From Gammaproteobacteria bacterium (GTDB taxonomy: Bacteria; Pseudomonadota; Gammaproteobacteria; Pseudomonadales; Azotimanducaceae), in assembly GCA_030428905.1 (NCBI GenBank), contig JAUIED010000003.1, positions 1-64,000 on the forward strand: a DNA stretch of 64,000 nucleotides, written 5' to 3'. The position numbers and the translations under genes were made by a program. The notes beneath the pieces were generated by a model that saw nothing but the letters and a program-made list of their open reading frames with translations, made no database searches and was not told where the DNA came from. Positions 675-13,883 of the stretch are shown here, piece after piece (the first letter of the stretch is position 1; each line of letters starts with the position of its first letter).

Positions 675-794
675 CTAGCCCGCCGCGAGGCTCAGCAGCT
701 CGAACACGCCCTGTAGTTGTCCCCACCAGAACCATGCCGCAGCACCGAGTATCGCTAGCGATGCCGCAGAGGCGATGATCTCCCGCGCGCTCAT
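675..794 (-). CDS. 39-residue single-span membrane peptide, last gene of the Rieske operon
   Basis: The ATG at 794 overlaps the TGA of the preceding membrane-protein gene (ATGA, bases 791-794). The frame runs 39 codons to a TAG at 675. The peptide starts MSAREIIASA, continues with a hydrophobic run (LAILGAAAWFWWG) and ends FELLSLAAG, so one membrane span is likely. The four-base stop/start overlap copies the coupling seen throughout this operon and is the main reason to believe it is translated. No family is recognised. It could be an assembly or stabilising subunit of the two membrane proteins encoded just upstream, but that is inference from position only. Confidence 0.5.
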   Translation of the reverse strand: MSAREIIASAASLAILGAAAWFWWGQLQGVFELLSLAAG

Positions 795-1264
795 GAGAAG
801 CCGATCCAGCGACCGCAGGCAGCCACCGTAAACCAGGTAACGAGGCTCGCCAACGCCATACCGCGCAGCGCCAAGGGGCTAAGGCTCACGTGCGCAGCAC
901 TTCGCAGCAGCGGGCGGCGTACGGTGTAGACGAACAGTACACCCACGGCCAACGCCGTCATCTTCGCCCAGAACATCTCGTTGTAGTACAGCTTCATGGC
1001 CACAGCACCGGTCATAAAGATGCCACTCAGCACGATTACCAGGAGCGCAAGGTTGAACCAGCGATCGGTTTCTCGGGCAACCGTTTCCGATGGTACGGCC
1101 GTCATCAGCACGCCGAGCAGCCGCAGGTCGGCAAGCAACACGCAGCCGCCGAGGAGCGCTAACGCCAGAAGATGGAACATCTGTACCACCACAAAGACCC
1201 CGCCATAGGCTTTCGCCATGCTGGCGAGCATCGAGTTGTCGATCCATGTGAAGAACTCAAGCAT
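791..1264 (-). CDS. Small integral membrane protein (DUF6644-like), paralogue of its neighbour
   Basis: The protein has 157 residues. I place the start at ATG 1264, which overlaps the TGA of the upstream gene by one base (TGATG). A longer frame runs upstream but lies inside that gene. Four hydrophobic segments are visible. The segment FHLLALALLGGCVLLADLRLLG aligns with the segment around THVLTLMVFLG...IDLRMLG of the next protein, so the two are paralogues sharing a His and a DLRxLG motif; both also have an N-x(2-3)-aromatic...K segment after the third span. This resembles the DUF6644 type of membrane protein, assigned from memory. Function is unknown. It lies in an operon with Rieske oxygenase and ferredoxin genes, which makes a membrane anchor or redox role possible but unproven. 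Confidence 0.65.
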   Translation of the reverse strand: MLEFFTWIDNSMLASMAKAYGGVFVVVQMFHLLALALLGGCVLLADLRLLGVLMTAVPSETVARETDRWFNLALLVIVLSGIFMTGAVAMKLYYNEMFWAKMTALAVGVLFVYTVRRPLLRSAAHVSLSPLALRGMALASLVTWFTVAACGRWIGFS

Positions 1265-1824
1265 CAAGACAGCTCCACACAGCCGGCAAGCCAGCTCATG
1301 AACGGCGTCAGGTCTTTGTGACAATCGAACCAGTCATAGGCAATCGCGCGGCCGAATACGACCACACCAGCCCAGAAGGCCAGCGACAGCGCCGCACCCA
1401 GTCGCAAAGGCTTAGGCATCGGCCCACGCTCGGGCAACGTTTGTTCAAGCGAGCGGATCCGGCGCCGGAACAACCATGCGTTGATACCCGCAGCGATCAG
1501 CAGCACCACCTTGAGACGGAACCAGATGCTGTTGGTGGTACGCTCGGGGATAGCAAAAAACAGGACGAAACCGGTAATCACCATGACGACGAAGCCGATG
1601 ACCATCGGCTTGTCGAGCGCCGCGGCGATGCGCGGTGCTGGAACATCCGCAAAAGCGAGGCCCAGCATACGCAGATCGATGAGCATGAGCATGCCGAGAA
1701 AGACCATGAGTGTGAGCACATGCGTGGTCTCGATCCACGAGTACATGTAGATCGACTCGTGCAGCGCCGTGCTCGCCTCGAAGCCGTCGAGCCACGTGGC
1801 GAACCTGACGAGCAGCTCGTTCAA
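1264..1824 (-). CDS. Integral membrane protein (DUF6644-like)
   Basis: The protein has 186 residues and at least four predicted membrane spans: about 25-50 (containing THVLTLMVFLG and IDLRMLG), 72-92 (MVIGFVVMVITGFVLFF), 103-117 (RLKVVLLIAAGINAW) and 143-162 (AALSLAFWAGVVVFG). The start is a TTG at 1824 that overlaps the ferredoxin TGA by four bases (TTGA), so translation is probably coupled. It is a paralogue of the 791-1264 product. The shared His inside the second hydrophobic segment could be a haem or metal ligand, but nothing in the sequence proves it. Function is unknown, and substrate uptake for the aromatic pathway is an alternative. Confidence 0.7.
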   Translation of the reverse strand: MNELLVRFATWLDGFEASTALHESIYMYSWIETTHVLTLMVFLGMLMLIDLRMLGLAFADVPAPRIAAALDKPMVIGFVVMVITGFVLFFAIPERTTNSIWFRLKVVLLIAAGINAWLFRRRIRSLEQTLPERGPMPKPLRLGAALSLAFWAGVVVFGRAIAYDWFDCHKDLTPFMSWLAGCVELS

Positions 1825-2141
1825 TACTGTGACTCCGGCAGCCGCACCACCAGACCATCGAGGTCATCGCTCACGTGGATCTGGCAGCTCAAACGGCTGG
1901 TGGCCTGCGGCTCGCCTACGCAGTCGAGCAGGTCGCGCTCCGCATCACTCGGCGGCGTGAGCAAGTCGTACCAGGCCTCGTCCACGTAACAGTGACAGGT
2001 CGCGCAGGCGCAGCCGCCGCCGCACTCCGCAACGATGCCTTCGATGCCATTCGCCGTTGCGCCTTCCATAACGGTGTCACCGTTGCGCACATCCACTTCC
2101 GTTTCGACGCCTTGCGCGTCGATATATTTCACCAGTGCCAT
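1821..2141 (-). CDS. [2Fe-2S] ferredoxin of a Rieske oxygenase system
   Basis: The 106-residue protein is a plant/adrenodoxin-type ferredoxin. The cluster ligands are visible as CGGGCACATCHC, that is C-x5-C-x2-C around residue 40-48, with a fourth Cys near residue 85 in RLSCQIHVS. Length and the C-terminal RLSCQI segment are typical of the family. It sits directly after the Rieske oxygenase beta gene and should carry electrons to the oxygenase. No ferredoxin reductase gene is present in the operon, so the reductase must come from elsewhere. The gene ends by overlapping the TTG start of the first membrane-protein gene. Confidence 0.9.
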   Translation of the reverse strand: MALVKYIDAQGVETEVDVRNGDTVMEGATANGIEGIVAECGGGCACATCHCYVDEAWYDLLTPPSDAERDLLDCVGEPQATSRLSCQIHVSDDLDGLVVRLPESQY

Positions 2142-2160
2142 ATGTCCAGTTTCGATTGCT

Positions 2161-2697
2161 TCAGATGTAGATGATGATGGTGTTCAGGGCCGCATCGCAA
2201 TTGATCAGGTCGACGCGCTTGTGGCGAATCATCCAGCGCCCGTCCTGCCGCACGAGTTCATGCGTGTAGCGGCCACCATACATCGTCTGTTTGCCGTTGT
2301 AATACATCAGGCAATGGAAGTTCGAATGCACGGTGCAGGACGCGTCATCTTCATCGGCTTCATCGGCTTTATCGGCTTTATCGGCTTCATCGGCTTCATC
2401 GGCAAAGCGGATGTTGGAGATGATGTGTGAGCAGCGAACCGGATAGTCCTTGGACGCGGCGCGCGGGTGTTTGATGTTGCGCCGTCGCACCTCCATGAGC
2501 ACACGGTCGTCGTAGAACAGAGAGATATGATCCAGCGGGCTTTCCTGATCGGGGATCACCGGCATCCAGTAGGTGCCATCCTGGGTGTACAGATCGATCC
2601 AGCCGTCGAGATCCGCCGCATCGAGGTACGACGCCTCCTGATATAGAAGCTGTTCGATCTCGCGGATGGCCGCGTCGCTTGCTACCACCTGCGTCAT
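2161..2697 (-). CDS. Rieske aromatic-ring oxygenase, beta (small) subunit, with an internal ADE/ADK repeat
   Basis: This is a 178-residue SnoaL/NTF2-fold small subunit. Typical family features are the N-terminal EIEQLLYQEASYLDAADLDGWIDLY helix, the TYWMPV strand and the C-terminal GGRYTHELVRQDGRWMI segment. I place the start at ATG 2697, which overlaps the alpha-subunit TGA (ATGA). Between SNIRF and SCTVHSNF lie six consecutive three-residue units (ADE ADE ADK ADK ADE ADE) encoded by a 9-bp tandem repeat at 2350-2403. This acidic loop looks like a slippage-driven insertion, because small subunits normally carry only a short turn here. The protein itself reads through intact. Confidence 0.88.
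   Translation of the reverse strand: MTQVVASDAAIREIEQLLYQEASYLDAADLDGWIDLYTQDGTYWMPVIPDQESPLDHISLFYDDRVLMEVRRRNIKHPRAASKDYPVRCSHIISNIRFADEADEADKADKADEADEDDASCTVHSNFHCLMYYNGKQTMYGGRYTHELVRQDGRWMIRHKRVDLINCDAALNTIIIYI
2350..2403. repeat. Six-unit 9-bp tandem repeat inside the Rieske beta-subunit gene
   Basis: Plus-strand units read TTCATCGGC, TTCATCGGC, TTTATCGGC, TTTATCGGC, TTCATCGGC, TTCATCGGC, end to end for 54 bases. They differ at one position only (C or T). In the coding strand each unit is GCC-GAT-GAA or GCC-GAT-AAA. Because a unit is three codons, gain or loss of copies keeps the frame. Such arrays vary by replication slippage. Confidence 0.97.
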
Positions 2698-3992
2698 GCC
2701 GCCTCCGTCATGTACTGCTTCCACGCGGCATACTGAGTGCGCATGTCCAGATCGCTCGTACCCGTGTTGACCAGACGGTCACCGAGGTCCTGGTCAGCGC
2801 CGTAGTTTCGATGCATCTCCACCCACTGACTGGCAGACGACTGAAGCCCCTGTTGCACACGGAAGTAGGCCGTGAGGTCATCGGGCCCCACCATCGAGCC
2901 ATTGGAGTTGATCAGCCTGGAGTACAGAAGCGTACGCCGCAGCATGGACTCCGGGGCACCCTTGAGGCGAAATGACCAGGTTTCGATAACGGTCCTGTCC
3001 ACCGCGATGGGGCGCACGACGCGAATGTTCTGCACCGCGGACTTGATGGTGAGCGACGGATAGAAGAGCGTGTTGTGCGTGTTGAACGTCAGGATTTCCC
3101 GGGTGCGCTCCGGTCCGTAGGCATCCAGCATGACGCGTTCGTAGTCCGGATCGACACTGTAATTCGCGTGGATACTGGTCTTGCCGCCATCGTAGTGATG
3201 GCCGTATCTGAAGCCGGTGATGCCGGTCGCTTCAAACGCCTCATAGGATGCGCCAAACGGCGGGATGATTTCTGCCTCGTCACGTCGCGGCGAGTCCTCC
3301 GGCAGCGTCTTGATGTAGTCGATCGCTGCGTCCACGACAGACTGGTGCACGACCATGGGATGCATGGTGTCGTTGAGGTTTTCGAGAAACAGCTTCCAGT
3401 TGCACTCATGTTCGTAGCGCAGCACGCCGCCAGCCGCTTCCACTTCACCTTCAGGCGATCGGTCGCACAGGTTGTCGAGCACGTCCCCGGCCCCCCCCAT
3501 CCAGTCGCGCAGCGTCGGCGGGTTGGCGTTGAGCGTGGCGAATACGAAACCCCGGTGACTGGAGCTTGCGAGCTTCTGCATGCTGTACTGCGGGTCGGAT
3601 TTGTCGAATCCCGTACCCTCGTAGCCCGCCATGTGCGGCACGCCGGCCAGCGTGCCATCGAGCTTGTAGGTCCAACCGTGGTAGCAGCAGCGGAAGGCAC
3701 TGACTTTGCCGCACGGCTTATCCACCAGCTTCGCTCCCTTATGGCCGCAGCGGTTATGCAGCACGTGCACCGCGCCCTGCCGATCACGCACCATCACCAC
3801 CGGCATGCTGCCGTAGTTCAACGTGATGTAATCACCGGGCTGCGGCACCTGGCTGTCGTGGCCGATGTAGATCCATGCATTGCCCCAGATGCGCTGCATC
3901 TCCAGATCGAATACCTGCGGATCAACGTACAGATTGCGGTGCAGCTTCGTCGGCTGCACCAGGTCTGCGATGCTCGCGTTGCTGTAGCTCAT
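2694..3992 (-). CDS. Rieske aromatic-ring-hydroxylating oxygenase, alpha (large) subunit
   Basis: The protein has 432 residues, the usual length for alpha subunits. The N-terminal Rieske [2Fe-2S] domain shows both ligand pairs: NRCGHKGAKL (C-x-H) about residue 82 and FRCCYHGWTY (C-x2-H) about residue 102. The catalytic domain shows the mononuclear iron motif ENLNDTMHPMVVHQS (D-x2-H-x4-H) near residue 205-216. A strong ribosome site (AGGAGG) lies upstream of ATG 3992. It forms an alpha-beta pair with the next gene and uses the adjacent ferredoxin. The substrate is probably an aromatic acid or a related ring compound. The monooxygenase gene upstream suggests benzoate-, salicylate- or anthranilate-type chemistry, but the exact substrate cannot be read from the sequence. 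Confidence 0.92.
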   Translation of the reverse strand: MSYSNASIADLVQPTKLHRNLYVDPQVFDLEMQRIWGNAWIYIGHDSQVPQPGDYITLNYGSMPVVMVRDRQGAVHVLHNRCGHKGAKLVDKPCGKVSAFRCCYHGWTYKLDGTLAGVPHMAGYEGTGFDKSDPQYSMQKLASSSHRGFVFATLNANPPTLRDWMGGAGDVLDNLCDRSPEGEVEAAGGVLRYEHECNWKLFLENLNDTMHPMVVHQSVVDAAIDYIKTLPEDSPRRDEAEIIPPFGASYEAFEATGITGFRYGHHYDGGKTSIHANYSVDPDYERVMLDAYGPERTREILTFNTHNTLFYPSLTIKSAVQNIRVVRPIAVDRTVIETWSFRLKGAPESMLRRTLLYSRLINSNGSMVGPDDLTAYFRVQQGLQSSASQWVEMHRNYGADQDLGDRLVNTGTSDLDMRTQYAAWKQYMTEAA

Positions 3993-4025
3993 TCCAACCT
4001 CCTGGGTCTTTACCCGCTAACGCTG

Positions 4026-6410
4026 CTACCCCTGCAGAAGCTCACCGCGCGCCACAGCAATGGCCAGCGCTTCGGTGGGGTTCGGGGGCCGGGCGTTTTC
4101 TCTCAACTCCAGCACTTCCTCCCGGTCCCCTCGGGCCGCCGCTTCGGCAGCCGGCTTGCCGGACAGGTACTGTCGCGGCCAGGCCTGCTGCCTGTGATCG
4201 TAGTGCGCCGCCGCACGCAACACAAAGTGCGGGTCGTTCATGATGGGCCTTCCCAGGGCGACGATGTCGGTGCGGCCCGCAGCGATGAGCGTGTTGGCCT
4301 GATCTGCGGTGGTGATATTGCCGGCGACGATGGTCGGGATGCCCACCTCGTTCCTGATCTGGTCGGCAAACGGCGCCTGAAACATGCGCCCGTAGATCGG
4401 ATCTTCGTCTTTGGTCACCTGGCCCGTGGAGACGTTGATGATATCTACCCCATGCGCCTTCAGCAGGCGCGCCACCTCCAGCATGTCTGCCTCGCTCAAG
4501 CCGTCGTCCACCCAGTCCGTTGCCGACACGCGCACCGAGACCGGCTTGTCCTGCGGCCACGCGTGACGCACCGCGTCGAGCACCCGCAGCGGAAAGCGCA
4601 TTCGGGATGTTATATCGCCTCCGTATGCATCGGTACGACGGTTGGTGACCGGGCTGATGAAACCACTGAGCAGGTAGCCGTGAGCCATATGCACTTCCAC
4701 CATGTCAAAGCCCGCCTGGTCCGCATGGCGGGTAGCCGCCTCGAAGTCGGCAACGATCTGCGTCATCTCCTGCTCGTCGAGCTCCCGCGGCGCCGGGCTG
4801 TGCGGCAGGTACGGCAGGGGCGAGGCAGCAACGGTCGGCCAGGCACCGTTCGCCAATGGCTGGTCAATGCCACCATCCCAGGGAACGCAGGTCGCACCTT
4901 TGCGGCCGGCGTGGCCGATCTGCGCGCACACTTTCGCGTTGGAGTTGAGGTGGGCGAAATCGACGATGCGCTTCCACTGCGCAACCTGCGCGTCATTCCA
5001 GATGCCTGCGCATCCGGGAGTGATACGGGCGGTGGGGCTGATACAGATCATCTCGGTGTTGAGCAACCCAACGCCGCCCACCGCGCGGGCGCCGTAGTGC
5101 ACGAGGTGCCAGTCCGTCGGCAAACCATCCTCTGCGCAGTACTGGCACATGGCCGAAAGCTCGAAGCGATTTTCCACACGCATGCGGCCGATGCGGAACG
5201 GCTGCAGCGCCGGCACCACGGGATGTTGCACATCGATGTCTTCGAAACCTGTGTCACTGCGCGCCTGTTCGGCAAACCAGCGATCCACGGACGCCACGTA
5301 GCGCTGATCGCGCAGCGCCAGGTTGTCATACGTCACGCGCTTGGAGCGGCAGAGCATGTTGAAGGCGAACTGCTGCGCACTCTGCGCTGAAGCATAACGG
5401 TCAATGTGCTCAAACCAGCTCAGGCTCACCACCGCGGTGCGCTGCAGGCGGTCCGCCTCCTCTTTGCGCAGCTCCTGGTAGCGCCGCAGCGCACCTGGCA
5501 CATCTTCGCCTACCTGTGCAAAGCAGCCGGCCAGGCTGATGGCGTCTTCCATGGCGAGTTTGGTGCCGGAACCGATGGAGAAGTGCGCGGAGCGAACGGC
5601 GTCGCCCATGAGCACCATGTTGCGATGGTAGAGCCGCTCGTTGCGCACCACCGGAAAGGTGCGCCAGATGGAGCGGTTGGTGATGAGCCCATGGCCATCG
5701 AGATCGTCGGCGAACAATGCTTCACAGTAACGCCGGGTATCCTCCTCCGAGGCAGACTCCATGCCGGCCCGCTGCCAGGTCTCTTCGCTGCACTCGACGA
5801 TGAAGGTCGACATGCCGGGCTCATAGCCGTAGGCATGCGCCCACCACCAACCATGCTCATTGCGCCGAAAGGTAAACGTGAAATCGCCGAACGGTTTTGA
5901 CGTGGCGAGCCAGCAGAATTTGTTGCAACGCATGTTCACCGACGTGCCGAAGGCGTCTGCATGGGCCTCGCGGATCATGGACGTGAGGCCGTCACCAGCC
6001 ACCACGAGGTCGTAAGCATCCATGTCGAGCTGGGCAAGGTCGGTGATGTCCGTGTCGAAGCGAAGGTTCACGCCGAGCTCATCGCAGCGATCATGGAAGA
6101 TGTTCAGTAACCGCAGCCGCGACATGCCGCAGAAGCCGTGTCCGGAGGAGTGAATGGTCTCGCCGTGGATCTTGGTATCGATGCCGCCCCAGTAGACGAA
6201 CTGCTCGACGATGTGCCGGTAGCTGGGCGCATCGGCATCCATGAAGCCCTTGAGCGTCTCGTCGGAGAACACAACGCCAAAACCCCAGGTGGAGTCGCGG
6301 CTGCCTCGCTCGATCACGGTGATGTCGTGATGCGGCGCCGCCTTCTTCATGAGGATGGAGAAATACAACGATGCGGGACCACCGCCCAGGCAGAGAATCT
6401 TCACGGGCAC
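4026..6410 (-). CDS. Anthraniloyl-CoA/salicylyl-CoA monooxygenase-like fusion (FAD hydroxylase + OYE-type reductase)
   Basis: The 794-residue protein has two enzymes in one chain. Residues 1-370 are an FAD monooxygenase of the aromatic-hydroxylase type: the Rossmann motif KILCLGGGPASLYF at the start, then GFGVVFSDE, and the second FAD motif VLMGDAVRSAHFSIGSGTK about residue 270. Residues 410-794 are an Old Yellow Enzyme-type FMN barrel: PFRIGRMRVENRF, HYGARAVGGVGLL, QIGHAGRKG, AHGYLLSGFISP and IVAGNIT. This order is that of bifunctional 2-aminobenzoyl-CoA monooxygenase/reductase and salicylyl-CoA 5-hydroxylase, which dearomatise aromatic CoA thioesters. It is the first gene of the minus-strand operon and lies 33 bases before the Rieske alpha gene. 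No dedicated aryl-CoA ligase is visible, so the CoA substrate is inferred from the family. Confidence 0.88.
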   Translation of the reverse strand: MPVKILCLGGGPASLYFSILMKKAAPHHDITVIERGSRDSTWGFGVVFSDETLKGFMDADAPSYRHIVEQFVYWGGIDTKIHGETIHSSGHGFCGMSRLRLLNIFHDRCDELGVNLRFDTDITDLAQLDMDAYDLVVAGDGLTSMIREAHADAFGTSVNMRCNKFCWLATSKPFGDFTFTFRRNEHGWWWAHAYGYEPGMSTFIVECSEETWQRAGMESASEEDTRRYCEALFADDLDGHGLITNRSIWRTFPVVRNERLYHRNMVLMGDAVRSAHFSIGSGTKLAMEDAISLAGCFAQVGEDVPGALRRYQELRKEEADRLQRTAVVSLSWFEHIDRYASAQSAQQFAFNMLCRSKRVTYDNLALRDQRYVASVDRWFAEQARSDTGFEDIDVQHPVVPALQPFRIGRMRVENRFELSAMCQYCAEDGLPTDWHLVHYGARAVGGVGLLNTEMICISPTARITPGCAGIWNDAQVAQWKRIVDFAHLNSNAKVCAQIGHAGRKGATCVPWDGGIDQPLANGAWPTVAASPLPYLPHSPAPRELDEQEMTQIVADFEAATRHADQAGFDMVEVHMAHGYLLSGFISPVTNRRTDAYGGDITSRMRFPLRVLDAVRHAWPQDKPVSVRVSATDWVDDGLSEADMLEVARLLKAHGVDIINVSTGQVTKDEDPIYGRMFQAPFADQIRNEVGIPTIVAGNITTADQANTLIAAGRTDIVALGRPIMNDPHFVLRAAAHYDHRQQAWPRQYLSGKPAAEAAARGDREEVLELRENARPPNPTEALAIAVARGELLQG

Positions 6411-6439: not shown

Positions 6440-6469
6440 CGCTTATATTTGACATGTCAAATATAAGCG
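6440..6469. promoter_or_regulatory. Perfect 30-bp palindrome, probable MarR operator
   Basis: The half-site CGCTTATATTTGACA is followed immediately by its exact reverse complement, so all 15 base pairs match around the centre 6454/6455. It lies in the 93-base gap between the divergently transcribed monooxygenase operon (start 6410) and the marR gene (start 6504). MarR dimers bind such AT-rich palindromes in divergent promoters, so a role as the shared operator is very likely. The palindrome contains TTGACA on both strands, which could double as -35 elements. Confidence 0.85.
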
Positions 6470-6503: not shown

Positions 6504-6944
6504 ATGGGCAAATCCCGCGAAGAGCAGACGCTACGCCTGTGGATTCAGATCGTACGTCTGGCCAATGGCCTGCAGAAGGATGTGGACTCAAGGCTGCGGC
6601 GCGAGCACGGCCAGAGCCTGGCCCGCTTCGACGTGCTCTCCCAGTTACATCGGGCAGCCGAACATCAGCTTTCGGTAGGGCTGCTTTCCGCAAGCCTGCT
6701 CACTCCCACCAACAATATCACCCGCCTGCTGGATCGCATGGAAAATGACGGCCTGCTGGTGCGCCGCCTGTCGGAAACGGATCGACGCAGCTTCACGGTG
6801 GAAGCAACGCAAGCGGGCCTTACCCTGTTCAAGGCCATGGCAGACGATAACCGCCGGTGGATCAACGATGCGTTCGCCATGCTCTCGGCGGGCGATCTGA
6901 ACGCACTGTCCAAGGCGATCGGCGTCGTCGAGTCAGAGACCTAA
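6504..6944 (+). CDS. MarR-family transcriptional regulator
   Basis: The protein has 146 residues. The winged-helix core is visible: SLARFDVLSQLHRA (helix 2/3), TPTNNITRLLDRMENDGLLVRR (recognition helix and start of the wing) and ETDRRSFTVEATQAG, which is the DxRxxxxxLT wing of MarR proteins (D and R retained). It is divergent from the aromatic oxygenase operon and separated from it by a perfect palindrome, so it probably represses that operon and itself until a ligand binds. MarR regulators of this group often sense aromatic acids or their CoA thioesters. Its 3' end overlaps the convergent acyl-CoA dehydrogenase gene by 12 bases. Confidence 0.92.
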   Translation: MGKSREEQTLRLWIQIVRLANGLQKDVDSRLRREHGQSLARFDVLSQLHRAAEHQLSVGLLSASLLTPTNNITRLLDRMENDGLLVRRLSETDRRSFTVEATQAGLTLFKAMADDNRRWINDAFAMLSAGDLNALSKAIGVVESET

Positions 6945-8114
6945 CACCGCTTTGGCTATGACGTTGCGCTGAATCTCGTTGGAGCCACCGTAGATCGTGT
7001 GCGCCCGGCCGAAGTTGTAGTCGCTCACCGCACGCAGCGCGAATTCCGGACCCGGCGGCGTGTCGGACTGCCCCGCAATCAACGCGGTTTCAAAGGGCAG
7101 CGCGTAGTAAGCCGCAGCTTCCACCCGCAGCAGCTCAATCGCCTGCATCATCTGTGTGCCCAGGATCTTCAGCAGCGACGCAGCGTCGCCCGGCGTACCG
7201 CCGCGGGCGAACTCTGCGAGCACCCGCGCCTCCAGGCTCTCAAGCGCATCGAGCTTCACCGCGGCGTCGTGCAGGCGGGCGCCAAAGCTCGCGTCATCAG
7301 CAAGCCGCGCACCGCTACCATCAGCCACTTCCTCGCGGGCGAGACGCTCCAGCGCCGCCAGGCTCCGTTTCGAACCCGCCACACCGGCGATGGAAGTGCG
7401 CTCGTGGCCGAGCAGGAACTTGGCGTAGGTCCAGCCCTGGTTTTCCTCGCCGATACGGTTGCCCACCGGCACGCGCACGTCGGTGAAATAAACCTCGTTG
7501 AGATGGTGCAGGCCGTCTATGGAAACGATGGGCCGTACCTCGATGCCTGGGCTTTTCATATCGATGAGCAGAAAGCTGATGCCGCGCTGCGGCTTGGCAG
7601 CACTGTCCGTGCGCACCAGACAGAAGATCCAATCCGCCTTGTGGGCGTTGGTGGTCCAGATCTTCTGTCCGTTCACCACGTAGTCATCGCCGTCGCGCAC
7701 CGCGGCGGTTTTCAGCGACGCCAGATCCGAGCCGCTGCCGGGCTCCGAGTAGCCCTGACACCACCACACGCTGCCGTCGAGTATGCCGGGCAGGTGCTGA
7801 CGCTGCTGCGCCTCGCTGCCGAACGTGTAGAGCACCGGCCCAACCATCTGCAGGCCGAACGGCATGAGCATCGGCGCACCGGCCAGCGCCAGTTCCGTAT
7901 CAAATATGTGCTGCTGGGTGAGCGTCCAGCCGGTACCGCCCTGTTCCACCGGCCAACCCGGCGCGATCCAGCCACGCTCGTAGAGCGCACGATGCCAGGC
8001 GGCGCCAATCGAACGTTCCACGCCGAAGCCCTGCAGCGCCGCCTCGCGCATATCGTCCGTAAGCGTTTCCTGGAGAAACGTCCTGACTTCTTCGCGAAAT
8101 TCCTGATCTTCCAT
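6933..8114 (-). CDS. Acyl-CoA dehydrogenase family protein
   Basis: The 393-residue flavoprotein has the standard three-part acyl-CoA dehydrogenase layout. Visible motifs are WCQGYSEPGSGSDLASLKT (flavin/substrate site, about residue 120), NGQKIWTTNAHKADW, and the C-terminal IYGGSNEIQRNVIAKAVLGL. It oxidises an acyl-CoA at the alpha-beta bond using FAD. The chain length or ring substrate is unknown. I chose ATG 8114; a GTG three codons upstream is possible. It lies beyond marR and on the opposite strand, so it could belong to the same CoA-ester pathway or to general fatty-acid oxidation. Confidence 0.9.
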   Translation of the reverse strand: MEDQEFREEVRTFLQETLTDDMREAALQGFGVERSIGAAWHRALYERGWIAPGWPVEQGGTGWTLTQQHIFDTELALAGAPMLMPFGLQMVGPVLYTFGSEAQQRQHLPGILDGSVWWCQGYSEPGSGSDLASLKTAAVRDGDDYVVNGQKIWTTNAHKADWIFCLVRTDSAAKPQRGISFLLIDMKSPGIEVRPIVSIDGLHHLNEVYFTDVRVPVGNRIGEENQGWTYAKFLLGHERTSIAGVAGSKRSLAALERLAREEVADGSGARLADDASFGARLHDAAVKLDALESLEARVLAEFARGGTPGDAASLLKILGTQMMQAIELLRVEAAAYYALPFETALIAGQSDTPPGPEFALRAVSDYNFGRAHTIYGGSNEIQRNVIAKAVLGL

Positions 8115-8254
8115 CTGTCGCACCTGCGCATGTGCCCGACATAAAGCCTGACGATGTTTTTACGAACCCACTGGTCGCCAGGATTGCCGCGACCCCTGTT
8201 TTGCCGCACCCTTCGTTTTGCGGCACCTTTGCCGATCCAAGGAGGACAATACAA

Positions 8255-11270: not shown

Positions 11271-12388
11271 CGCAGTACAGCCTGAAATGCGGACTCGAAA
11301 GCTTGCATGGCGGTATCGACGGCATGGTTGCCCTGGAAATAGGTATGGGCCCGCTGGCTCGCCGCGTCGAGCGCGTCTGGCGCTGCGCAGTAGGCGTGTA
11401 TGCCTTCGGCAAGGCCATGGTCATCGCAAGCGACCTTACCAAGACCGAGCTCGCGGATGAGACCGTCCGGATCAACCGTGCTCAGCACCGGCCGGGCGTG
11501 GGCCCAGCTTTCGAGGAAGGTATTTGGGAAACCCTCGTAGTCAGACGTGCACAACAGCATCCAGCATTTACGCAGCAGCGGCGCCACCTGCTCGGCCGAC
11601 AGACGGCCGTGCATGGTGACGTTGGCCATATCGTTACCGAGGCGCATCATCTCCCGGGCATAGTCCGGGTCCTGATCTTCGCCGCCGACCACATCGAACA
11701 GCACTTCCGGCAGGCGAGCAGCCACCGCAAACAGGCGCTGCAGGTTCTTCACTGGTGCAAGCCTGCCTACCCACAGCACCCGCGGCCTTGCGCCACGCTT
11801 CGCAAGCAAGCCATCCAGATCGAGCCCCTCTGGCGCAGGGCACGGCATTTTGCAGACCTGGCTATCCAGCCCAAAGCCCGTCGCAAGCGCGTGCTTCTGG
11901 GCGCGGGTTTGCACCAGGATCGCGTCTGCATGACGCAGGCCGTAGGTATAAAGTGTTCGCTCTCTGAAGCTCGGCAGGATGGGCAACGCCGGATCGCACT
12001 CGGGATCGCTCGCCACTGAGAAAACGAACCTGCGATCGTGTCTGCGCGCCCAGAGCGCCACCTGGCCCGTAATCGCTTCGGCACAGTTGTGGAAGTACAC
12101 GTCTGCATCGGCCCGCGCCATGGCACGCCGCAGGGACGTCCAGCGGGGGACCAGGAAGCGCAAACCCGGCAAACCTTCCTCGCGGCGGCAGATCTTGAGG
12201 ATGCGCACGCCGCCGACGTCCTCGTCTGCAGCGCCACCGTGCGTCCAGGTCAGCACGCTGGTCGGATGCCCTGCGTCTACCAGCCAACGGGCCATGATCG
12301 CCGTCTGGCGCTCAACGCCGCCGATATGCAGATTCGAATCGTTCACAAGCGCCCCGTAGGCGTTGTGCGCGACGATGCAGACCTTCAC
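11267..12388 (-). CDS. Glycosyltransferase family 4 protein
   Basis: The 373-residue GT-B enzyme starts VKVCIVAHNAYGAL with IGGVERQTAIMARWL as glycine-rich N-terminal motif. The C-terminal half has RVLWVGRLAPVKNLQRLF and the E-x7-E type segment DYEGFPNTFLESWAHARPVLS. I chose GTG 12388, because AGGAAAGG sits seven bases upstream; a TTG at 12412 is the alternative. It is the first gene of the glycosyltransferase operon. It is distinct enough from the next gene that the two probably add different sugars. Confidence 0.87.
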   Translation of the reverse strand: MKVCIVAHNAYGALVNDSNLHIGGVERQTAIMARWLVDAGHPTSVLTWTHGGAADEDVGGVRILKICRREEGLPGLRFLVPRWTSLRRAMARADADVYFHNCAEAITGQVALWARRHDRRFVFSVASDPECDPALPILPSFRERTLYTYGLRHADAILVQTRAQKHALATGFGLDSQVCKMPCPAPEGLDLDGLLAKRGARPRVLWVGRLAPVKNLQRLFAVAARLPEVLFDVVGGEDQDPDYAREMMRLGNDMANVTMHGRLSAEQVAPLLRKCWMLLCTSDYEGFPNTFLESWAHARPVLSTVDPDGLIRELGLGKVACDDHGLAEGIHAYCAAPDALDAASQRAHTYFQGNHAVDTAMQAFESAFQAVLR

Positions 12389-12455
12389 CGGCCATCCTTT
12401 CCTCAGTGACAACCCATCATGTTAGCGGCAACCTGAGGCGTGTTTGCCAACTACG

Positions 12456-13883
12456 TCACAGGCGCTCGTAGACATTGCTGTGGCGCAGCACGCCAGTCAC
12501 ATTCCCCTTCGCATCCCGCTGAAAAACCCAGGCCTCACGGCGCTCTCCGTCGTCGGTCACGCGTACGAAGGCATCGCCTTCGACATGCTGCAGCTTGACG
12601 AGGTTGTCCATGTCGTCGCTGGGCAGCGCCACGCCAACGAGCCTTGCCCCCCATGGCCGCAGAGCGATCTCGCCGCCCCAGATACGCGAGCCGTAGTTGC
12701 CGGCGTAGGTGTCCAACGGAACCGACGCCTCGTCAATCGGCTGCTCAAGCTTCTGCAGCGCACCACCGACGGTCTTGAGAAGGTTTACACCAATGGTGTC
12801 CGCTGGCCCATCGGCCGCGTTGGTGAGCACCACCGCTGCGAGCTTGTGTTTTGGCACCATGAGGAGGCTTGTGATGTACCCGGGGCAGCCGCCGCCGTGG
12901 CCGACCACGGTCTGGCCATCAGCATTGTCGATGGCGAAGCCCAGGCCCCAGGTAACCTTCCAATCGGGATCCACCCAGGCCACCTGCTGCATTTCCGCAA
13001 GCGTTTCTTTCGACAGCACCGATTGCTCGGAACCTGCCAGCACCCGGAACTGCCAGCTGGCAAATCGCGCCAGATCGTTGACCGAGCTGGTGAACCCGGC
13101 GGCGGGTGCGATGCCTCGCGTATCGAACGGCGGCAGGGGCTTGCGGCCGCCCGTGCGCAGCTTGCCGCGGTAGCCCACCGCCATGCGGTTGCCGTGCAGA
13201 TCCTTGGGGAAGAAAGTACGCGTGTCGGCCATGCCGAGCGGATCGAGGATGTGCTGCCGAACATACGCATCAAACGGCTGCCCCGAGCGCGCCTCTACAA
13301 TCTCACCAGCGAGCGCAAGGCCGAGGTTCGAGTACTGAAACAACGTCGCGTACGGATACAGCATCTCCTGCTGCCCGAGACGCTCGCGCAGCGCCTCGCG
13401 CGTGGGAAAAGGGTGGTCCTCACCCAGCCAGTACGGAAAGTCGGACTCCCGCGGCAGGCCCGCTGAGTGGGTCAGCAGCCCTTTGATGCGCACCGGCCCA
13501 CCGCCCACGTCGCCAGGCTGGATGTCGAACCAGGGCAGGTGATCAGCGACCGGGTCCCTCAAGCTCAGTTTGCCCGCGTCCCGCTGCTGCATGACGCCTA
13601 TGCTCGTGAAGAGCTTGCTGATACTGCAGATGCTGTAGATCGTATCTGCATCCGCTGCCACCTTCCGGCGCACATTCGCGTACCCGTAGCCTTTGCTGAA
13701 CACGACCTCCTGGTCGACCACAAAGCCCACAGAAATTCCCGGAACGTCCTCAAAGGCCTGTACCGATTCGATCCACGCATCGACGAGTGCCAACGCGCCG
13801 CGCACCTGCGGATGCGCGCCAACGCCTGCCAGAACCGAACCGCTGGCAACCAGCATCAACACCAATACACAAACACGTCTCAT
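12456..13883 (-). CDS. Exported serine hydrolase, beta-lactamase/penicillin-binding-like family
   Basis: The 475-residue protein begins with a signal peptide (VCVLVLMLVASGSVLAGV). The class C-type catalytic motifs are visible: SICSISKLFT (S-x2-K) about residue 84, FQYSNLGLALAG (Y-x-N) about residue 185, and VVGHGGGCPGY (HGG, replacing the KTG box) about residue 325. The last 130 residues are a separate C-terminal domain. Such enzymes act in the periplasm as peptidases or esterases, and the true substrate is seldom known. GGAGG precedes ATG 13883. Antibiotic resistance should not be inferred. Confidence 0.88.
   Translation of the reverse strand: MRRVCVLVLMLVASGSVLAGVGAHPQVRGALALVDAWIESVQAFEDVPGISVGFVVDQEVVFSKGYGYANVRRKVAADADTIYSICSISKLFTSIGVMQQRDAGKLSLRDPVADHLPWFDIQPGDVGGGPVRIKGLLTHSAGLPRESDFPYWLGEDHPFPTREALRERLGQQEMLYPYATLFQYSNLGLALAGEIVEARSGQPFDAYVRQHILDPLGMADTRTFFPKDLHGNRMAVGYRGKLRTGGRKPLPPFDTRGIAPAAGFTSSVNDLARFASWQFRVLAGSEQSVLSKETLAEMQQVAWVDPDWKVTWGLGFAIDNADGQTVVGHGGGCPGYITSLLMVPKHKLAAVVLTNAADGPADTIGVNLLKTVGGALQKLEQPIDEASVPLDTYAGNYGSRIWGGEIALRPWGARLVGVALPSDDMDNLVKLQHVEGDAFVRVTDDGERREAWVFQRDAKGNVTGVLRHSNVYERL

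What the first reader, a model, noticed from the sequence alone, without database searches (positions are those of the whole stretch)
675..6410. Compact operon joining a CoA-type aromatic monooxygenase, a Rieske dioxygenase and membrane proteins
Seven minus-strand genes, mostly with 1-4 base overlaps, encode an anthraniloyl/salicylyl-CoA monooxygenase-like fusion, Rieske alpha and beta subunits, a ferredoxin, two paralogous membrane proteins and a 39-residue membrane peptide. I do not know a described pathway with this set. A dearomatising aryl-CoA enzyme normally belongs to a CoA pathway, while the Rieske enzyme normally acts on free acids. No ferredoxin reductase is present, so the membrane proteins could supply electrons or uptake. 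The pathway idea is inference; the gene order is seen.
Basis: partly seen in the sequence, partly recalled or inferred. Interest (0 to 1): 0.68.

Follow-up and report, generated by a model that had tools for sequence, protein, structure and literature searches.

The report
Auxin-degradation operon with borrowed membrane genes
The operon is most likely the oxygenase part of a bacterial pathway that eats the plant hormone auxin and finishes it off as a coenzyme-A compound, while the membrane genes at its end are a separate conserved trio of unknown function that became attached to it.

Summary
The seven-gene operon at 675-6410 is real, but not a new pathway. The Rieske alpha subunit falls in the clade of IadD, the indole-3-acetate (IAA) oxygenase of Variovorax (46.8% identity); all nine published IAA-pocket residues are identical. 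Relatives carry iad-type genes nearby (ligase or thiolase in 19 of 24 fetched loci). The host genome has homologues of the remaining iad enzymes except IadC on three other contigs; the IadI homologue resembles isatin hydrolase. The iad route gives isatinate; IadAB, a 2-oxoacid oxidoreductase, could turn it into anthraniloyl-CoA, substrate of the operon's flavin fusion enzyme. That step is inference, but it explains why a Rieske and an aryl-CoA enzyme share an operon; in G704 the fusion gene lies inside the iad operon. The membrane genes form a separate conserved trio (DUF6644 pair in 26 of 26 loci, peptide in 25). They were detected in none of 24 homologous iad loci; one same-genus contig, G702, ends 26 bases into memB. 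A ferredoxin reductase is encoded elsewhere. A new variant of a known kind.

The parts
4026..6410 (-). FAD monooxygenase + old-yellow-enzyme (OYE) reductase fusion (anthraniloyl/salicylyl-CoA monooxygenase-reductase type); proposed to dearomatise anthraniloyl-CoA
   Evidence: PRK08255 1041 bits, cut-off 1078; next to MarR also in G008, G140, G113 (67-69% identity); inside an iad operon in G704
2694..3992 (-). Rieske oxygenase alpha subunit, IadD-like (indole-3-acetate oxygenase)
   Evidence: best PDB hits 9o71 and 7yls, E about 1e-134; next 1e-42; tree; 15 of 15 positions examined identical to IadD
2161..2697 (-). Rieske oxygenase beta subunit, IadE-like, with a 15-residue Ala-Asp-Glu-type insert relative to G702
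   Evidence: (best PDB hit is IadE of 7yls/8h2t/9o71)
1821..2141 (-). [2Fe-2S] ferredoxin of putidaredoxin/terpredoxin type, proposed electron donor of the Rieske pair
   Evidence: found only in G702 among 24 homologous loci
1264..1824 (-). memB, membrane protein modelled as four long helices, distant DUF6644 relative; TTG start overlapping the ferredoxin stop
791..1264 (-). memA, DUF6644 membrane protein
675..794 (-). 39-residue single-span peptide, third member of the memB-memA-peptide module
6504..6944 (+). divergent MarR-family regulator
   Evidence: a MarR gene also adjoins the fusion gene in G008, G140, G113, G702 and G735
6440..6469 (.). 30-bp perfect palindrome between MarR gene and operon, candidate operator
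   Evidence: 26-bp palindrome with the same core in G702, 12-bp core in G735; not present in G008, G140, G113, which have other short palindromes or none

Best explanation
The operon encodes two steps of an iad-type pathway that breaks down indole-3-acetate (auxin) and ends in an aryl-CoA. Step 1: the IadDE-like Rieske oxygenase (2161-3992), fed electrons by the ferredoxin (1821-2141) and a reductase encoded elsewhere, oxidises IAA. Middle steps, encoded on other contigs of the same genome: IadJ (dehydrogenase), IadF (CoA ligase), IadG (thiolase), IadH and IadI (isatin hydrolase) lead to isatinate (2-aminophenylglyoxylate). IadAB, a 2-oxoacid:acceptor oxidoreductase, then oxidatively decarboxylates isatinate with CoA to anthraniloyl-CoA. 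Last: the flavin fusion (4026-6410) hydroxylates and reduces anthraniloyl-CoA to a non-aromatic CoA ester, which the ECH, SDR, RidA, OYE and acyl-CoA dehydrogenase genes near the iad set carry on. A MarR repressor acting on the 30-bp palindrome probably controls the operon. memB-memA-peptide is a separate conserved membrane module attached behind the ferredoxin in this lineage; its role is open and probably not catalytic in the pathway. Shown: gene identities, synteny, pocket conservation, presence of the other genes. Inferred: substrate, IadAB product, fate of the CoA ester, electron route, regulation.
For: Alpha is closest in the PDB to IadD (E about 1e-134, next family 1e-42) and falls in the IadD clade, apart from the pCAR1 clade (SH-like support 0.876). 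At 15 positions (nine IAA-pocket residues, of which two are also Fe ligands; the third Fe ligand; four Rieske ligands; Asp213, which I added) it is identical to IadD; the sister clade differs at two pocket positions (residue list from PMC10374108 section 8). Ligase or thiolase (iadF/G) lies in the fetched region in 19 of 24 homologous loci, IorA in 8, the fusion gene in 9 (regions of 4.9-60 kb, the long ones chosen because searches placed both genes on that contig). In G704 ECH-SDR-fusion-IadI-IadJ-IadH-IadG-IadF-IadE-IadD-IadB-IadA lie on one contig, one strand. Among 292 other genomes of the order, 8 of 11 with alpha (E<=1e-100) also have the fusion, against 13 of 281 without (not corrected for relatedness; the 8 are from 5 families). 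The host genome has IorA 58-60%, IorB 42-50%, ligase 44-53%, thiolase 56%, an OB-SDR protein, SDR 50%, cyclase 57-59% (isatin hydrolase in the PDB, E 2e-62), ECH 74%, OYE 63%, RidA 62%, ACAD 68% to the relatives' proteins. [quoted passage not shown]
Against: No activity is shown. The other iad genes are on contigs C49, C91 and C158, whose joining is inferred from two genes split at their ends (ligase, cyclase), and whose link to the window contig is unknown. Names IadF-IadJ rest on the order and annotation of a Labrenzia cluster and on the roles given in PMC12633357, not on comparison with the Variovorax proteins. The Labrenzia alpha itself differs at one pocket position (Leu211 to Gln), so the pocket list is not absolute. 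The fusion scores under the NCBIfam equivalog cut-off (1041 against 1078), so salicylyl-CoA is not excluded. Published iad work finds free anthranilate as end product (PMC9613470, PMC12633357), and iadAB were outside the nine-gene region (iadC-K2) that sufficed for it in V. paradoxus. Five of 24 homologous loci show neither ligase nor thiolase in the fetched stretch. The IadR structure (7kfo) is only a weak match to the MarR (E 2e-8; best 3boq).
Confidence: 0.8

Rival explanations
1. The Rieske enzyme oxidises another indole or N-aromatic compound (for example a substituted indole acid) and the iad-like genes serve that compound; the fusion still takes an anthraniloyl-CoA-type product.
For: Identity to IadD is only 46.8%. 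Related alpha subunits of a sister clade occur without ligase and thiolase nearby (pCAR1, a Variovorax plasmid).
Against: All nine IAA-pocket residues are kept, and the sister clade differs at two of them. Isatin hydrolase, ligase and thiolase homologues are all present in the genome.
Confidence: 0.12
2. memB, memA and the peptide form a quinol- or haem-linked membrane electron donor to the ferredoxin and Rieske pair, replacing the missing reductase.
For: Translational overlap of ferredoxin and memB in the window and G702; invariant histidines (memB H22 and H35, memA H31); VIA-align rows include b-type cytochromes, e.g. memB to cytochrome b561 4o7g Z 9.1, rmsd 4.6, 141 residues aligned. The two genomes known to have this ferredoxin are also the two in which memB follows it.
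Against: Trio not detected in 24 homologous iad loci (G702 is cut just inside memB); memA not found in 9 of 10 other genomes with an alpha homologue; trio present in 26 loci with no fusion, beta or adjacent alpha/ferredoxin and memB in two same-genus genomes without the alpha at E<=1e-100. Z below about 13 for helical bundles is uninformative by the tool's own note; unrelated chains score as high. A ferredoxin reductase exists elsewhere.
Confidence: 0.07
3. Two unrelated functions sharing a promoter: a salicylyl-CoA (gentisate-route) enzyme and a Rieske enzyme for something else.
For: PRK08255 is named bifunctional salicylyl-CoA 5-hydroxylase/oxidoreductase; the fusion occurs in 13 genomes of the order that lack the alpha at E<=1e-100.
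Against: Co-occurrence in 8 of 11 genomes, same fetched region in 9 of 24 loci, and the G704 operon.
Confidence: 0.06

Closest known systems
iad locus of Variovorax / Achromobacter / Bradyrhizobium (PMC9613470 passages; PMC12633357 abstract, sections 5 and 6, passages; PMC10374108 abstract, section 8, passages; PMC11630574 passages)
   Same: IadDE-type alpha and beta with the full IAA pocket; MarR next to the genes; homologues of iadA, B, F, G, H, I, J in the genome
   Different: No iadC reductase found in the loci compared, a putidaredoxin-type ferredoxin instead; the anthraniloyl-CoA-type enzyme is in the operon, so the lower pathway probably runs through an aryl-CoA; genes lie on several contigs; membrane trio attached
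2-aminobenzoyl-CoA (anthraniloyl-CoA) monooxygenase/reductase pathway (passages of PMC6221969, which reports such a cluster as needed for anthranilate use during indole degradation)
   Same: Two-domain flavoprotein joining a monooxygenase and an OYE-type reductase; serves an indole-derived route
   Different: Here fed, as proposed, by IadAB from isatinate instead of by a 2-aminobenzoyl-CoA ligase from anthranilate
Anaerobic iaa pathway of Aromatoleum (IAA to 2-aminobenzoyl-CoA; one passage of PMC9613470; details recalled)
   Same: Ends in the same CoA thioester
   Different: O2-independent chemistry; no Rieske enzyme and no isatin step, as I recall it
Phenylglyoxylate:acceptor oxidoreductase (recalled)
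   Same: Oxidative decarboxylation of an arylglyoxylate with CoA to an aryl-CoA, the model for the IadAB step
   Different: The iadAB-like genes are of the indolepyruvate oxidoreductase family; not tested on isatinate
DUF6644 (PF20349)
   Same: memA scores 186 bits, memB 34 bits (cut-off 27)
   Different: Family of unknown function; here two paralogues plus a ~40-residue peptide form a recurring trio

Membership tests
IadDE indole-3-acetate oxygenase | Closest to IadD and in its clade | tested here: met
   (support 0.876 for excluding the pCAR1 clade)
IadDE indole-3-acetate oxygenase | IAA-pocket residues N210 L211 H216 H221 F251 H311 K322 R329 Y362 | tested here: met
   nine of nine; residue list
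IadDE indole-3-acetate oxygenase | Turnover of IAA | not testable with these tools
   needs enzyme assay
iad pathway | iadF, G, H, I, J homologues present | tested here: met
   on other contigs (ligase and cyclase split at contig ends); names by Labrenzia cluster order, not by comparison with Variovorax proteins
iad pathway | iadA and iadB (IorAB) present | tested here: met
iad pathway | iadC (PDR/VanB-type reductase) beside iadDE | tested here: not met
   none in the first 20 kb of the window, the fetched parts of three own contigs or 24 homologous loci (tblastn with the Labrenzia protein, E<=1e-10); control finds it in L098-L100, and at E<=1e-3 one 24% hit in G813. The rest of the genome was not searched for iadC. 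It works like iad but lacks this part locally
iad pathway | IadR-type MarR repressor | tested here: inconclusive
   IadR structure 7kfo E 2e-8, best hit 3boq E 3e-21
bifunctional salicylyl-CoA 5-hydroxylase/oxidoreductase (PRK08255) | Score above the curated cut-off 1078 | tested here: not met
   1041.2 bits over positions 2-761 of 768; same architecture, equivalog membership not claimed
anthraniloyl-CoA monooxygenase/reductase | Activity with anthraniloyl-CoA | not testable with these tools
   inferred from pathway context
DUF6644 (PF20349) | Score above cut-off 27 | tested here: met
   memA 186.3, memB 34.3 bits
b-type cytochrome (b561 / bd) fold for memB and memA | Clear structural match | tested here: inconclusive

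The most novel reading that the evidence does not exclude
In these bacteria the aerobic auxin pathway does not release anthranilate: IadAB acts as an isatinate (2-aminophenylglyoxylate):acceptor oxidoreductase that makes anthraniloyl-CoA directly, saving a ligase step and ATP, and the fusion enzyme in the window opens the aryl-CoA lower pathway. In addition memB-memA-peptide is an undescribed three-part membrane complex that has become coupled to the IAA oxygenase through the ferredoxin in one lineage.
Probability: 0.5. Interest if true: 0.62.

Novelty: new variant of a known kind. Interest (0 to 1): 0.45.

Why it matters
The iad papers I read in part stop at anthranilate, and in the passages I saw no enzyme is assigned to isatinate. 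The clusters described here suggest an answer that one enzyme assay can test: IadAB makes anthraniloyl-CoA. If true, the iad route becomes a complete breakdown pathway for auxin through an aryl-CoA in gammaproteobacteria, beyond the rhizosphere genera mostly studied (PMC11630574 reports iad-like operons in 2 of 304 marine MAGs, so the presence of iad outside soil is not new in itself; a 2-aminobenzoyl-CoA cluster serving indole degradation is also already reported, PMC6221969). The membrane trio is a recurring conserved module without a known role and is defined here as a unit of three genes.

Tried and rejected
Electron supply by the membrane proteins: rejected as the leading idea because the trio is not detected in 24 homologous loci (G702 is cut just inside memB), memA is not found in 9 of 10 other genomes with an alpha homologue (one of the ten, G211, belongs to the sister clade), and the trio occurs elsewhere without these enzymes. 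Haem or quinone fold for memB and memA: AlphaFold models show four long helices (mean pLDDT 80 and 90). Foldseek found no match at E<=0.001 for memB. VIA-align Z values of at most 10.7 are shared with de novo bundles and chemoreceptors, so nothing is concluded; families not listed are not excluded. memA had no Foldseek job of its own.

Assembly artefact at the ferredoxin/memB junction: rejected by G702. Shared operator on the other iad contigs: the palindrome core was not found at 4 or fewer mismatches in the stretches held. Class-wide search for the alpha: 3 of 368 other genomes at E<=1e-100, not followed further. Five homologous alpha loci at E<=1e-100 (G164, G211, G411, G534, G492) were not fetched, so the 24 are 24 of 29. 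The 26 memA loci come from one pattern scan for close relatives, not from a census of DUF6644. Gene calls in relatives come from my own simple gene finder, and the identity thresholds are mine. Paper searches for the IadAB to anthraniloyl-CoA step showed none: open-licence library only, listings capped at 10-15 titles (of 0, 103, 20, 13, 1,773 and 1 papers), and only passages of a few papers opened. DUF6644 gave 0 papers. The name iad is also used for a different, iac-like cluster in Pseudomonas sp. LY1 (PMC8383072, passages); I do not mean that one.


Full report
Observation. Seven minus-strand genes lie at 675-6410 as described, with four overlapping junctions and two short gaps. A MarR gene diverges upstream (6504-6944), and a 30-bp perfect palindrome lies between them (6440-6469). 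The window is the first 64,000 bases of a 70,553-base contig of a 5.2-Mb genome (99.6% complete), so nothing is known before position 1.

What the Rieske pair is. Against solved structures, alpha matches IadD of Variovorax (9o71, 7yls) with E about 1e-134; the next family has E 1e-42. Beta matches IadE best. Identity of alpha to IadD is 46.8%. In a tree of 40 sequences the window protein lies in the clade with IadD and a Labrenzia protein from an iad-type cluster, apart from a sister clade with pCAR1 (support 0.876). Ma et al. 2023 list the pocket residues (PMC10374108, section 8). All nine, with the remaining iron and Rieske ligands and Asp213 (15 positions in all), are identical in the window; the sister clade has Asn for Phe251 and His for Lys322, and the Labrenzia protein has Gln for Leu211.

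Neighbourhoods. In the order, 22 of 293 genomes have the fusion at E<=1e-100, own genome included. Outside the own genome 11 of 292 have alpha at E<=1e-100; 8 of these 11 also have the fusion, against 13 of the other 281 (Fisher 2.5e-8, not corrected for relatedness). I fetched 24 of the 29 homologous alpha loci found, in stretches of 4.9 to 60 kb; the long ones were chosen because the fusion was already known to lie on the same contig. CoA ligase or thiolase lies in the fetched region in 19 of 24, IorA in 8, the fusion in 9, the window-type ferredoxin in 1 (G702), and memA or memB is detected in 0. G702 ends 26 bases into memB, so it probably shares memB and counts as a miss only for lack of sequence. 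The five loci without ligase or thiolase are G702, G735, G813, G817 and G764; three of them are on contigs of under 13 kb. In G704 one contig carries ECH-SDR-fusion-IadI-IadJ-IadH-IadG-IadF-IadE-IadD-IadB-IadA. A Labrenzia plasmid has MarR, reductase, D, E, ligase, thiolase, OB-SDR, cyclase, SDR, the order C-J described for Variovorax; my names IadF-IadJ rest on this order and on the roles in PMC12633357.

The rest of the pathway in this genome. Contig C49 ends with IorA, IorB and the first part of the ligase. C91 carries the rest of the ligase, the thiolase, an OB-SDR protein, an SDR and the first 45 residues of the cyclase. C158 begins with the rest of the cyclase, then SDR, ECH, OYE and RidA. 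An acyl-CoA dehydrogenase is also on C49 and a thioesterase on C158. The cyclase is an isatin-hydrolase homologue (E 2e-62). So homologues for the steps from IAA to isatinate, and a 2-oxoacid oxidoreductase, are all encoded, IadC excepted (not sought beyond these stretches).

Mechanism. Published iad work has IadCDE oxidise IAA, with IadJ, F, G, H, I leading to anthranilate (PMC12633357, sections 5 and 6; PMC9613470, passages, where isatin and isatinic acid were detected). The first product is disputed: oxIAA in PMC10374108, another C10H9NO3 compound in PMC12633357. IorAB homologues are listed as iadA and iadB without an assigned step in the passages I read, and the region iadC-K2, without them, sufficed for anthranilate, which speaks against an essential role there. 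Isatinate is 2-aminophenylglyoxylate; an enzyme of the 2-oxoacid:acceptor oxidoreductase kind would give anthraniloyl-CoA, as phenylglyoxylate oxidoreductase gives benzoyl-CoA (recalled). That is the proposed substrate of the window's fusion enzyme. This link is inference; I found no paper stating it (listings and passages only).

Electron supply. No IadC-type reductase was found in the 24 loci at E<=1e-10; at 1e-3 there is one 24% hit, 9 kb from alpha, in G813 (with working control). Its absence here is thus ordinary for these relatives. One gene with PF07992 and PF14759, the putidaredoxin-reductase architecture, lies on C38 and is a candidate partner of the ferredoxin.

Membrane genes. memB and memA are adjacent in 26 of 26 loci found with memA, at roughly 20-140 bases. 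A short hydrophobic ORF follows in 25 of 26, with WFWxxQ in 21 of these 25; the one miss is a contig that ends inside memA. That ORF search required a hydrophobic ORF containing Trp; tblastn alone found the peptide in 11 of 26. Neighbours of the trio vary: SDR, Gfo/Idh-like, deacetylase-like and others (names from my reading of sequences). None of the 26 loci shows the fusion or beta; a 31% alpha-like hit (L026) and a 41% ferredoxin (L024) lie kilobases away on the other strand. memB matches at E<=0.001 in 9 of 17 family genomes searched: two of these lack the alpha, six have it on another contig, and in G764 the two are 2.2 Mb apart; in G779, G797 and G817 the match is weak (29-35%) and may be another DUF6644 pair. 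The two other same-genus genomes with the operon, G702 and G735, gave no memB match, while the two without alpha, G679 and G719, did. In G735 a HigB-like ORF (name from reading the sequence) follows beta instead of the ferredoxin. The trio is therefore best seen as a separate conserved module that was joined, behind a ferredoxin, to the iad genes in one branch of this genus (window, and as far as its contig goes G702).

Verdict. A real operon, explained as part of iad auxin catabolism with an aryl-CoA lower pathway; new variant of a known kind. The uncertain and interesting parts are the IadAB step and the function of the trio.

Noticed in passing
window 2349-2403: In-frame 9-bp tandem repeat (6.1 copies) in the beta-subunit gene; the window protein is 15 residues (Ala-Asp-Glu-Lys type) longer there than that of its near relative G702. 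Possible length variation in the Rieske beta subunit.
   Followed up: partly
window 6440-6469: 30-bp perfect palindrome between the divergent MarR gene and the operon, core conserved in G702 and G735 but not in G008, G140 or G113.
   Followed up: partly
L003-L028 and window 675-1824: Conserved trio of two DUF6644-like membrane proteins and a ~40-residue single-span peptide, mostly with WFWxxQ; memB has invariant D164, W165, D167, C168 and C182 near its C-terminus. No function known.
   Followed up: partly
window 6933-8123: Acyl-CoA dehydrogenase gene beyond MarR; an acyl-CoA dehydrogenase-like stretch lies beyond MarR in G702 and G735 too.
   Followed up: no
L138:7543-7752 (G735): HigB-like ORF after the beta gene where the window has the ferredoxin and membrane genes (name from reading the sequence).
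   Followed up: no
L100 (pCAR1) 12001-13855: A sister-clade Rieske pair about 8 kb from antABC on pCAR1 differs at two IAA-pocket positions, so may take a related but different indole substrate.
   Followed up: partly
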